DNA of 35,415 nucleotides from Limosilactobacillus antri DSM 16041. GTDB taxonomy: Bacteria; Bacillota; Bacilli; Lactobacillales; Lactobacillaceae. Where the stretch lies: the NCBI RefSeq assembly GCF_000160835.1, contig NZ_GG700733.1:1-35415 (forward strand). The letters are read 5' to 3'. Position numbers and translations under genes: made by a program. Below the pieces are notes generated by a model. It was not told the DNA's origin and searched no databases. It worked only from the letters and a program-made list of their open reading frames with translations. Of the stretch, positions 27,659 to 29,641 are shown piece after piece. Within the stretch, counting starts at the first letter, position 1. Each line of letters begins with the position of its first letter.

Positions 27659-27687
27659 TTGACATCTGCTTGCACCTAATGTAAATT
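27659..27687 (+). promoter_or_regulatory. ilvBC promoter
   Basis: Consensus -35 TTGACA (27659-27664) and -10 TAAATT (27682-27687) with 17 bp between. The transcript would carry a leader of about 280 nt before ilvB. The stretch 27498-27658 in front holds nothing I can identify. Confidence 0.8.
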
Positions 27688-27737
27688 AACATCATCAAAT
27701 TTATCATTAAATCTTTAGCAAAGGGAGGTAGCTCACC

Positions 27738-27842
27738 ATGATGATGGTTAACGTTCAATTAAATAGCCAATTGATTATTGTCATTATTAGCTTGGTCGTT
27801 ATTATTACCATTTCTGGTGAGTTAATGCCCGGGCCATTTTGA
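27738..27842 (+). CDS. Leader peptide of the ilvBC attenuator
   Basis: A 34-codon frame with an excellent ribosome site (AAGGGAGG, 9 nt before ATG). The peptide starts MMMVNVQLNSQLIIVIISLV and continues VIITISGELMPGPF. Sixteen of 34 residues are branched-chain amino acids (7 Ile, 5 Val, 4 Leu), most of them in one block (residues 12-25). It ends 28 bp before a strong terminator that precedes ilvB. It is the textbook form of a leader peptide sensing charged tRNA-Ile, -Val and -Leu. Its own product need have no function. Confidence 0.88.
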   Translation: MMMVNVQLNSQLIIVIISLVVIITISGELMPGPF

Positions 27843-27911
27843 CATGGCCAGATAACTGAAGCGGCATCAAAGGCTCCACCAGAAGAACTATTTTCTGGTG
27901 GGGCCTTTTTT
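27812..27911 (+). promoter_or_regulatory. ilvBC transcription attenuator
   Basis: The terminator is a 14-bp stem (AGGCTCCACCAGAA, 27871-27884, with TTCTGGTGGGGCCT, 27893-27906; one G-U pair) followed by Ts to 27911. The competing antiterminator pairs TTCTGGTG (27812-27819, inside the leader peptide gene) with CACCAGAA (27877-27884), stacked on ATGCC/GGCAT (27825-27829 with 27863-27867) and GGCCA/TGGCC. A ribosome stalled on the Ile/Val codons upstream of 27812 leaves the antiterminator free to form; one reaching the stop at 27842 covers it, so transcription ends. The pairing was found by eye. Confidence 0.85.
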
Positions 27912-27973
27912 CTTGGCTGAATGAGGTAAGAAAAATTTGATAATCTAAGACTTTACTTTTAGGAGGTGACTTT

Positions 27974-29641
27974 ATGGCACAAGTAAGCGGTTCGCAAATA
28001 TTGCTTGATGAACTAACCGCCCACCAGGTGGAAGTGGTTTTCGGTTATCCCGGCGGCGCAGTGATCCCCCTCTATGACGAAGTTTATTGCCAAAAGTACA
28101 ATAATATTCTCGTCCGTCATGAACAGGGGGCGGCCCACGCAGCAGAGGGCTATGCGAAGTCAACGGGAAAAACCGGCGTTGTTTTTACCACTTCCGGTCC
28201 TGGGGCCACCAATGCTTTGACCGGGATCGCTGATGCCAAAGCTGATTCGGTGCCGATGGTAATTTTTACCGGTCAGGTAAATCGCGCAGCAATTGGCACG
28301 AATGCTTTCCAAGAAGTCGACATTGTTTCGATGGCCAAACCAATCACCAAAGCAATTTTCCGGGTTTCAACGCCCAGCGCACTCGCCAGCACGATTCGCC
28401 AGGCGTTCGCCATTGCGCAAGCTGGCCGCAAGGGGCCGGTCTTGGTCGACCTGCCAAAGGACATTACTACCGCAATGGTTCACCCCGCTGCCCAGACGAC
28501 GCCAGCTACGCACCACCCCACTAACTCGGGCCAAGCTGGCTTCACCGAAGTTTGGCAGGCCCTGAAGCAGGCTCGCCGCCCGCTCTTCCTGTTCGGCAAC
28601 GGCGCAGCGACTGAACAGGCAAGTCAGCTCGCCCGGCAACTGATCCTGCGGACGAAGATTCCGGCCGTCGCCACCCTGCTTGGCCTAGGAATTGTTCCTA
28701 GCGATCACCCGCTCTTCCTGGGAATGGGTGGAATGCACGGGTCCTATGCCGCCAACATGGCTTTGAGCAACTGCGACTTCCTGATAAACATTGGGGCACG
28801 GTTCGACGACCGGCTCGCCACCGACCCGACCAGCTTTGCACCCCACGCAAAAATCGCTCACTTTGACATTGACCCGCGGGAGCTGGGCAAGCTTGTTCCC
28901 ACCGATTATCCAGTCGTAGCGGATGCTCGTGACGCATTGGAATGGCTGGTGGCAGCTAGTCAGCGGGAAAATGTACTGCCACATTCTGAATGGAACAGCC
29001 AAGTCAAGGCTTGGCAAACGCTGCACCCATTCACATACCACTATGAAGAAAATACTATCAAACCCCAAGCAGTCATTGAAGACGTCAGCAAACTAACTGC
29101 CGGACAGGCAGTGGTGGTCACTGACGTCGGGCAACACCAAATGTGGGCAGCCCAATTTTATTCCTACCAGCACCCGAAACAGTTAGTAACGAGCGGTGGT
29201 TTAGGAACGATGGGCTTTGGCTTGCCCGCGGCAATCGGCGCCAAAGTTGGCCAGCCCGAAAAGGCCGTGGTCCTGTTTACCGGCGATGGCGGCTTCCAGA
29301 TGACGCTGGAGGAATTAGACGTCATTCGCGAACGACAGTTAAACATCAAGATTGTCTTGTTTAACAACCACGCCTTGGGAATGGTTAAGCAGTGGCAGGA
29401 CTTATTCTTCAACCGTCACCGCAGCCAAACCGTCTTTAAAACGCAGCCTGATTTCCAGCAAATCCTTCGTGGATATGGAATTGACAGCTACCAGCTGCAC
29501 AGTGATAACTGGCAGGAAGAACTGGCCGAAGCCTTTGCCAGTCCGCACGCCGCGTTTATTGAAGTACCAATTCCGGCTGATGAGAACGTCTACCCGATGG
29601 TGCCAGCCGGAAAAGCAAATTCCGAAATGATTTTAGAATAA
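27974..29641 (+). CDS. ilvB: Acetolactate synthase, large (catalytic) subunit
   Basis: ThDP-dependent enzyme joining two pyruvates to acetolactate (or pyruvate with 2-oxobutyrate), the first common step of Val, Leu and Ile synthesis. It has 555 residues. The N-terminal part is VEVVFGYPGGAVIPLYDE, with the catalytic Glu in RHEQGAAHAAEGYA and GPGATNALTGIADAKADSVP. The C-terminal ThDP/Mg site is GDGGFQMTLEELDVIRERQL, then FNNHALGMVKQWQ. These features fit the biosynthetic IlvB type. ATG 27974 has AGGAGGTGA upstream. The regulatory subunit ilvN and the dehydratase ilvD are not beside it; ilvC follows 38 bp later. It is controlled by the Ile/Val/Leu attenuator. Confidence 0.93.
   Translation: MAQVSGSQILLDELTAHQVEVVFGYPGGAVIPLYDEVYCQKYNNILVRHEQGAAHAAEGYAKSTGKTGVVFTTSGPGATNALTGIADAKADSVPMVIFTGQVNRAAIGTNAFQEVDIVSMAKPITKAIFRVSTPSALASTIRQAFAIAQAGRKGPVLVDLPKDITTAMVHPAAQTTPATHHPTNSGQAGFTEVWQALKQARRPLFLFGNGAATEQASQLARQLILRTKIPAVATLLGLGIVPSDHPLFLGMGGMHGSYAANMALSNCDFLINIGARFDDRLATDPTSFAPHAKIAHFDIDPRELGKLVPTDYPVVADARDALEWLVAASQRENVLPHSEWNSQVKAWQTLHPFTYHYEENTIKPQAVIEDVSKLTAGQAVVVTDVGQHQMWAAQFYSYQHPKQLVTSGGLGTMGFGLPAAIGAKVGQPEKAVVLFTGDGGFQMTLEELDVIRERQLNIKIVLFNNHALGMVKQWQDLFFNRHRSQTVFKTQPDFQQILRGYGIDSYQLHSDNWQEELAEAFASPHAAFIEVPIPADENVYPMVPAGKANSEMILE

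What the first reader, a model, noticed from the sequence alone, without database searches (positions are those of the whole stretch)
27659..27974. Leader-peptide attenuator controlling ilvBC
A complete Trp/Ilv-style attenuation system can be drawn: consensus promoter, strong ribosome site, a 34-codon peptide with 16 Ile/Val/Leu residues, an antiterminator strand lying inside the peptide gene at 27812-27819 directly after the Ile/Val block, and a 14-bp terminator at 27871-27911 that shares its 5' arm with the antiterminator. Leader-peptide attenuation is known for ilv/leu genes in enterobacteria and Lactococcus, while T-boxes are more usual in Firmicutes. I know of no description in this group.
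Basis: partly seen in the sequence, partly recalled or inferred. Interest (0 to 1): 0.8.

Follow-up and report, generated by a model that had tools for sequence, protein, structure and literature searches.

The report
Leader-peptide attenuator before ilvB-ilvC
A short gene that a ribosome can only read quickly when isoleucine, valine and leucine are plentiful appears to decide whether a lactobacillus switches on genes for making those amino acids; the kind of switch is known, but it was not expected in this bacterial family.

Summary
Before ilvB-ilvC (IlvB 98% identical to Limosilactobacillus oris) lie a promoter-like site, a strong ribosome site, a 34-codon ORF with 16 Ile/Val/Leu codons, and an 18-bp terminator whose 5' arm can instead pair with the ORF's tail. 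Comparison supports the interpretation. Similar leaders precede ilvB in 13 of 46 ilvB-bearing genomes among 397 Lactobacillaceae; a covariance model built from 12 of them, without the window, finds the window leader (48 bits, E 1.8e-9). Nine other ilvB genes have a T-box instead. Two additions: strand 2 also pairs, with covariation, with the leader's own start site; and the relatives use a relay of helices where the window's 3:4 hairpin is itself the terminator. L. gastricus carries a second BCAA leader before ilvD. Leader attenuation of ilv operons is already shown in Listeria and Corynebacterium and supported in Staphylococcus: a new member of a known kind, seemingly undescribed in Lactobacillaceae. 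Nothing was measured; some folds of relatives do not fit.

The parts
27659..27687 (+). sigma-70-like promoter TTGACA-17-TAAATT
   Evidence: 10 of 12 consensus positions; use not shown
27721..27748 (+). ribosome-binding and start region of the leader; also protector strand: 27729-27738 pairs with 27815-27824, and 27740-27748 with 27807-27814 (one unpaired base)
   Evidence: duplex -27.3 kcal/mol, reached by 1 of 5000 shuffles; covaries across species
27738..27842 (+). leader ORF, 34 codons, 16 Ile/Val/Leu, stop TGA 27840-27842
   Evidence: similar peptides in 13 relatives
27771..27812 (+). Ile/Val/Leu block (codons 12-25), presumed stall sites
   Evidence: masked folds; stalling itself not shown
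27790..27834 (+). local 1:2 hairpin over the last BCAA codons, holding strand 2
   Evidence: fold; equivalent helix in relatives, 86.0% of 107 cells paired
27812..27829 (+). strand 2: antiterminator 5' side, in the ORF tail
   Evidence: pairs with 27863-27867, 27872-27875 and 27877-27884
27832..27849 (+). short hairpin GGCCAT/ATGGCC with the leader stop codon in its loop
   Evidence: seen in folds; similar hairpins in relatives by eye only, no pair count made
27863..27884 (+). strand 3: antiterminator 3' side, overlapping the terminator 5' arm
27869..27911 (+). intrinsic terminator, 18 pairs, loop of 4, T run
   Evidence: aligned by model R1 to the family terminator
27974..29641 (+). ilvB, biosynthetic acetolactate synthase large subunit
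   Evidence: TIGR00118 688 bits, cut-off 538; 98% to an L. oris protein
29674..30687 (+). ilvC, ketol-acid reductoisomerase
   Evidence: TIGR00465 405 bits, cut-off 226

Best explanation
This is a ribosome-mediated transcription attenuator of the ilvB-ilvC operon. With Ile, Val and Leu charged, a ribosome reads through to the stop codon at 27840, covers part of strand 2 and lets the rest pair back with the leader start site, so the terminator 27869-27911 forms and transcription stops before ilvB. When a branched-chain aminoacyl-tRNA is short, the ribosome stalls in codons 12-22, breaks the start:2 and 1:2 pairings and frees strand 2 (27812-27829) to pair with strand 3; the terminator cannot form and ilvBC is transcribed. 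Without leader translation, strand 2 stays paired with the leader's ribosome-binding and start site and termination is the default. Shown by sequence: the elements, their relatives and the compensatory changes. Inferred: promoter use, leader translation, stalling, and which of the three amino acids counts.
For: Elements at the stated places. Similar BCAA leaders before ilvB, same strand, in 13 of 46 ilvB genomes. Model R1 from 12 relatives finds the window (48 bits) and L084 (51 bits), neither used to build it; in a scan of 395 genomes of the order the best match other than L. gastricus had 38.7 bits. Antitermination structure (2:3 + 4:5): 93.8% of 260 cells paired, 5 pairs with two-sided change (2 of 500 shuffles reach this). 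Termination structure (3:4 + 5:6): 94.9% of 234 cells, 5 such pairs (3 of 500). Swapping strands between 9 species (8 for 4:5) weakens each helix: permutations as good are 7 for start:2, 0 for 2:3, 1 for 3:4, 63 for 4:5, of 20000 each. Masked folds of the window: no ribosome start:2 0.80 and 2:3 0.01; stalled at Val 21, 2:3 0.89; at the stop 2:3 0.01. All 13 leader-bearing relatives also carry ilvD and ilvC. L. gastricus, the nearest relative, has a second BCAA leader with a terminator before divergent ilvD.
Against: No expression data. The window's 2:3 pairing is not unusual once its peptide is fixed (288 of 2000). On the full window transcript the terminator wins at equilibrium under every mask (3:4 0.90-0.92), so the switch must be kinetic. 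If a second ribosome sits on the start while the first is at the stop, 2:3 comes back in the window (0.55) and is 0.55 or more in 7 of 10 leaders. Not every relative fits: with all upstream RNA masked up to the stop, 3 of 12 (L085, L086, L087) do not form 3:4; with a footprint-only mask 4 of 10 keep 2:3 at the stop, and with one stalled ribosome 4 of 10 keep start:2. Of the two-sided pairs, 3 of 5 (antitermination) and 2 of 5 (termination) rest on the near-identical L105 and L106 alone, and the number of pair types is not above shuffles (437 and 205 of 500). The window lacks the separate 5:6 terminator of the relatives.
Confidence: 0.92

Rival explanations
1. A tRNA- or ligand-sensing leader (T-box, ppGpp riboswitch) controls ilvBC, and the short ORF is incidental.
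For: T-boxes precede ilvB on the same strand in 9 of the 46 Lactobacillaceae loci (7 at gathering score, 2 below).
Against: No Rfam family reaches its gathering score in the window, nor is there a T-box at gathering score in any of the 13 leader-bearing relatives. The conserved part is the BCAA ORF and its tail.
Confidence: 0.03
2. A plain partial terminator, with the ORF a chance AT-rich reading frame.
For: Ile/Val runs arise readily in AT-rich DNA; the full-length fold always favours the terminator.
Against: ORF, ribosome site, place and tail recur in 13 relatives, and both alternative folds show compensatory change.
Confidence: 0.02
3. Strand 2 mainly shuts the leader's own start site, and a protein such as CodY sets transcription of ilvBC.
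For: start:2 is the strongest pairing of strand 2 in the window and covaries; CodY represses ilv in Staphylococcus and Listeria.
Against: It leaves the covarying 2:3, 3:4 and 4:5 helices and the terminator without a role. CodY sites were not searched for; CodY could act as well.
Confidence: 0.03

Closest known systems
Listeria monocytogenes Rli60 attenuator of ilv-leu (PMC5864092; passages seen)
   Same: BCAA-rich leader peptide (13 aa), 2:3 antiterminator and 3:4 terminator; start-codon and ribosome-site mutants lower ilvD, terminator mutant raises it
   Different: Precedes ilvD; its Rfam family rli60 does not match the window
Staphylococcus aureus ilv-leu attenuator (PMC5794164; section 9 and passages seen)
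   Same: 26-aa Ile/Leu-rich leader, conserved terminator, suppressor mutants
   Different: Proposed antiterminator pairs the U tail and leaves the terminator stem intact; precedes ilvD
Corynebacterium ilvBNC attenuator / ilvB-II motif (PMC11857589 abstract; PMC10272879 passages)
   Same: BCAA leader directly before ilvB; three-hairpin model (terminator, antiterminator, anti-antiterminator) with mutational support
   Different: Actinobacteria; a reference title there speaks of leader formation without a ribosome-binding site, the window has a strong one
Lactococcus lactis ilv leader (Godon 1992; seen only as cited in PMC5794164)
   Same: Lactobacillales, BCAA leader predicted
   Different: Not compared by sequence here
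His leader peptides in bacilli replacing T-boxes (PMC2965389; passages seen)
   Same: Leader peptide in Firmicutes where a T-box is usual
   Different: Other amino acid and genes (hisS paralogs)
his-type six-strand attenuator of Salmonella/E. coli (recalled, no call)
   Same: Relay of alternating helices, as in the relatives
   Different: The window has the shorter form

Membership tests
Ribosome-mediated (leader-peptide) transcription attenuators | Short ORF with ribosome site, rich in codons of the end product, before the biosynthetic genes | tested here: met
   16 of 34 codons Ile/Val/Leu; ilvB-ilvC follow
Ribosome-mediated (leader-peptide) transcription attenuators | Intrinsic terminator between the ORF and the first gene | tested here: met
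   18-bp stem plus T run, 62 nt before ilvB
Ribosome-mediated (leader-peptide) transcription attenuators | Mutually exclusive antiterminator sharing the terminator 5' arm | tested here: met
   covariation in relatives
Ribosome-mediated (leader-peptide) transcription attenuators | A stall frees the antiterminator, completion of the leader does not | tested here: inconclusive
   Folds fit in the window, except with a queued second ribosome; 9 of 12 relatives fit with the full mask, fewer with the footprint mask
Ribosome-mediated (leader-peptide) transcription attenuators | Leader is translated and read-through rises on starvation for the amino acid | not testable with these tools
   needs reporter or RNA measurements
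T-box riboswitch (RF00230) | Match to the Rfam model at gathering score | tested here: not met
   0 matches in the window; 7 relatives' ilvB leaders match
rli60 (RF02414) and other Rfam families | Match to the Rfam model at gathering score | tested here: not met
   0 matches in the window
his-type relay attenuator | Second, separate terminator hairpin released through a 4:5 helix | tested here: not met
   Window: 3:4 is itself the terminator. Seen in the 12 aligned relatives

The most novel reading that the evidence does not exclude
An RNA family of Lactobacillaceae in which the protector strand is the leader's own ribosome-binding and start site, so that the decision depends on a stall and on whether the start site is occupied: the switch would read both aminoacyl-tRNA charging and initiation rate. 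The family holds a direct (window) and a relay (relatives) output, which catches an attenuator changing its architecture, and belongs to a wider, unrecorded set of BCAA leaders in this bacterial family (before ilvB, ilvD and a transporter).
Probability: 0.25. Interest if true: 0.6.

Novelty: new member of a known kind. Interest (0 to 1): 0.5.

Why it matters
It puts leader-peptide attenuation beside T-box control of the same gene within one bacterial family (13 and 9 of 46 loci), so the exchange of one sensing system for another can be studied among relatives. Direct and relay forms of similar leaders give natural test pieces for how attenuators evolve. It also predicts how L. oris and L. gastricus, of a genus in which 1 of 50 genomes held carries this ilvB, tune branched-chain amino acid synthesis.

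Tried and rejected
T-box, ppGpp riboswitch or another Rfam RNA: none in the window at gathering score. Model R1 matches in 43 genomes other than L. gastricus: 20 loci (L129-L148) were read by script and eye, the rest not. Most end in a terminator and none had a recognisable ilv gene as its longest downstream frame; 3 of 20 (L132, L133, L142) held a short ORF passing a loose BCAA filter without a ribosome-site test. L132 and L138 are cut by a contig end, so their match position there is unsure. The 12 training genomes are not among the matches, so I infer that the even draw left them out; the scan says little about frequency. In one search the weak matches in L122 (27.4 bits) and L125 (25.1 bits) proved to be further BCAA leader-like elements on the other strand, which I had overlooked until the report check. 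First censuses missed leaders because minus-strand loci are not turned; corrected. In the named loci, 13 were scanned over 600 nt: 4 (L001, L006, L009, L010) held an ORF passing a loose filter without ribosome-site test, not followed up.

Papers: seven searches listed no paper whose title or abstract start describes an ilv leader attenuator in Lactobacillaceae; one of them returned nothing at all, lists were cut at 10-20 rows, and the library lacks most subscription journals.

Full report
What was checked. The sequence shows every element of the finding: a promoter-like TTGACA-17-TAAATT at 27659-27687, a purine-rich ribosome site, an ATG at 27738, a 34-codon ORF ending at 27842 with 7 Ile, 5 Val and 4 Leu codons, and an 18-pair terminator 27869-27908 with a T run to 27911. 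ilvB (27974-29641) and ilvC (29674-30687) follow; both pass curated family cut-offs. Among 368 short ORFs in the window the leader has the densest Ile/Val/Leu stretch. The region folds far better than shuffles (z -6.45). The complementarity of the ORF tail to the terminator arm is reached by 15 of 2000 dinucleotide shuffles but by 288 of 2000 synonymous recodings, so the single sequence cannot prove the switch.

Where it comes from. IlvB is 98% identical to a Limosilactobacillus oris protein and 69% to that of L. gastricus. No whole genome is held for the window. Of 50 genomes of the genus of L. gastricus, 1 (L. gastricus itself, L084, IlvB 100% identical to P0016) encodes this IlvB at E 1e-100.

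Relatives. A search of 397 Lactobacillaceae genomes, drawn evenly from a larger group, gave 46 with IlvB at E 1e-150 or better. The DNA before ilvB was examined in all 46: 30 as loci of that search, one as L083, 15 fetched. Thirteen carry, on the strand of ilvB, a short ATG ORF with a Shine-Dalgarno motif and a BCAA run: L084-L093, L103, L105, L106. L084 and L086-L090 match L. gastricus and Liquorilactobacillus ghanensis, sicerae, mali, aquaticus and capillatus by IlvB identity of 99.8-100%. Ten of the 13 peptides contain CDLM near the end; the window has GELMP. Nine of 46 loci have a T-box on the strand of ilvB (7 at gathering score, 2 below), nine have a T-box only on the other strand, and in fifteen neither a leader of this kind nor a T-box was found for ilvB (loci were scanned at gathering score only unless repeated). 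In an IlvB tree of 32 rows the leader label needs 2 changes (1 of 500 shuffles as low) and one origin is not ruled out; the window and L084 are sisters with 100/100 support.

Kinship of the window leader. A covariance model made from 12 leaders, leaving out the window and L084, matches L084 at 51 bits and the window at 27780-27910 at 48 bits, E 1.8e-9. A scan of 395 genomes of the order gave L. gastricus and, in 43 other genomes, weaker matches of at most 38.7 bits; of the 20 read most are plain terminators. E-values are rough because calibration was short.

Two alternative structures. In the 12-leader alignment A1 the antitermination structure (strand 2 in the ORF tail with 3; 4 with 5) has 93.8% of 260 cells paired and 5 pairs with two-sided changes; the termination structure (3 with 4; 5 with 6, the hairpin before the T run) has 94.9% of 234 cells and 5 such pairs. 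Sliding the partners by 1-3 columns lowers pairing to 47% and 58% at most. Limits: the structures were written from one member, L089; 3 of 5 and 2 of 5 of the two-sided pairs rest on the near-identical L105 and L106 alone; the number of pair types is not above shuffles. The local 1:2 hairpin over the last BCAA codons is paired in 86.0% of 107 cells of alignment A2, with weaker support (two-sided pairs reached by 99 of 500 shuffles, covariation score by 6). A swap test across 9 species (8 for 4:5), which needs no full alignment, agrees: own strands beat permuted ones in start:2, 2:3, 3:4 and 4:5 (7, 0, 1 and 63 of 20000 permutations as good). Strand limits for the window and L084 were chosen by eye.

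The start-site protector. Strand 2 pairs with the leader's own ribosome-binding and start region: 27729-27738 with 27815-27824 and 27740-27748 with 27807-27814, -27.3 kcal/mol, reached by 1 of 5000 shuffles of the start region and by 12 of 14152 windows of 37 bases elsewhere. Without a ribosome it dominates in 6 of 10 leaders tested, is partial in 2 (L086, L105) and absent in 2 (L087, L103) (10 of the 14 leaders were given to that call).

How it would work. Folding the window with a ribosome footprint masked: no ribosome, start:2 0.80 and 2:3 0.01, hence termination; stalled at Val 21, 2:3 0.89, hence antitermination; at the stop, start:2 0.57 and 2:3 0.01, hence termination. With everything upstream masked, stalls at codons 12-22 leave 2:3 at 0.77-0.82, codon 23 at 0.58, codon 25 at 0.13, so stalls early in the block should be the effective ones. 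In the 12 aligned relatives a stall with all upstream RNA masked gives 2:3 at 0.74-0.93 in 12 of 12, and a ribosome at the stop gives 3:4 in 9 of 12. With footprint masks, one stalled ribosome gives 2:3 in 6 of 10 and a stalled plus a queued one in 10 of 10, but 4 of 10 keep 2:3 at the stop, and a queued ribosome behind one at the stop brings 2:3 back to 0.55 or more in 7 of 10, the window among them. These are equilibrium folds and cannot settle a kinetic question; on the full window transcript the terminator always wins.

The relay. In the relatives the 3:4 hairpin has no T run; freeing strand 4 lets it hold the 5' arm of a separate terminator. In the window the 3:4 hairpin itself ends in the T run, so strand 2 acts directly.

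Further leaders, found at the report check. On the other strand before ilvB, L. gastricus has an 18-aa leader (MNQQLPVILITVISIIVI) with ribosome site and a terminator-like hairpin before divergent ilvD, and L083 (the Convivina genome of L007) a 23-aa leader before divergent ilvD (TIGR00110 790 and 780 bits). Eight Liquorilactobacillus-type loci (L086-L093) have a 17-20-aa Ile-rich leader before a divergent transporter (metabolite/H+ symporter type, 418 bits, under its cut-off of 443, in L165); terminator-like hairpins were printed for 6 of the 8. Pairing in these was not analysed. They suggest that BCAA leaders are common in this bacterial family.

Comparison with the literature. Leader-peptide attenuation of ilv genes has mutants behind it in Listeria (PMC5864092, passages) and Corynebacterium (PMC11857589, abstract), suppressor mutants in S. 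aureus (PMC5794164, section 9), and is cited there as predicted for Lactococcus and Streptococcus. A 2010 survey reported His leader peptides in bacilli in place of T-boxes (PMC2965389, passages). Seven paper searches listed none in Lactobacillaceae. The six-strand his relay, and start-site pairing in the trp leader, are recalled and were not looked up.

Verdict. Observation confirmed, interpretation supported, kind known; a seemingly undescribed member with a marked start-site protector and a direct form of what is a relay in its relatives.

Noticed in passing
L164 (G346:C5:13800-17300) and L084, strand opposite to ilvB: Second BCAA leader (18 aa, MNQQLPVILITVISIIVI) with ribosome site and terminator-like hairpin before divergent ilvD of L. 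gastricus; a comparable 23-aa leader before ilvD in L083/L167.
   Followed up: partly
L086-L093, strand opposite to ilvB: 17-20-aa Ile-rich leader before a divergent metabolite/H+ symporter-type transporter in eight loci, terminator-like hairpin printed for six; would predict that this transporter handles a branched-chain amino acid.
   Followed up: partly
L121-L125 and L166, L168-L171: BCAA leader-like ORF plus strong terminator with no same-strand gene close behind (next gene in L166 is a phosphoketolase-like frame on the other strand, by eye); BCAA codons fewer in L124 and out of frame in L125. A relic, or a leader acting in trans.
   Followed up: partly
L098, L114-L118, L120, L126, L127: T-box on the strand opposite to ilvB in nine Lactobacillaceae loci; the gene it serves was not identified.
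   Followed up: no
L006 450-655: Staphylococcus rostri locus matches Rfam rli60, the Listeria ilv attenuator family, upstream of ilvB.
   Followed up: no
window 27450-27493: Imperfect inverted repeat (GGAGTGGGACAG ... CTGTCTCGCTCC) between the gene at 26350-27012 and the ilv promoter, by eye; a terminator or a dispersed repeat.
   Followed up: no
window 27738-27842: All four Leu codons of the leader are TTA or TTG, which make up 54 of 262 Leu codons in six window genes; rare codons may sharpen the Leu response, or follow from the AT-rich leader.
   Followed up: partly
window 4177-7872, minus strand: Large cell-wall-like protein with long repeats and an LPQTG-type sorting signal, by eye.
   Followed up: no
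window 9638-10240: 200-aa ORF that looks like a truncated transposase, by eye, behind two genes that look like LrgA/LrgB.
   Followed up: no
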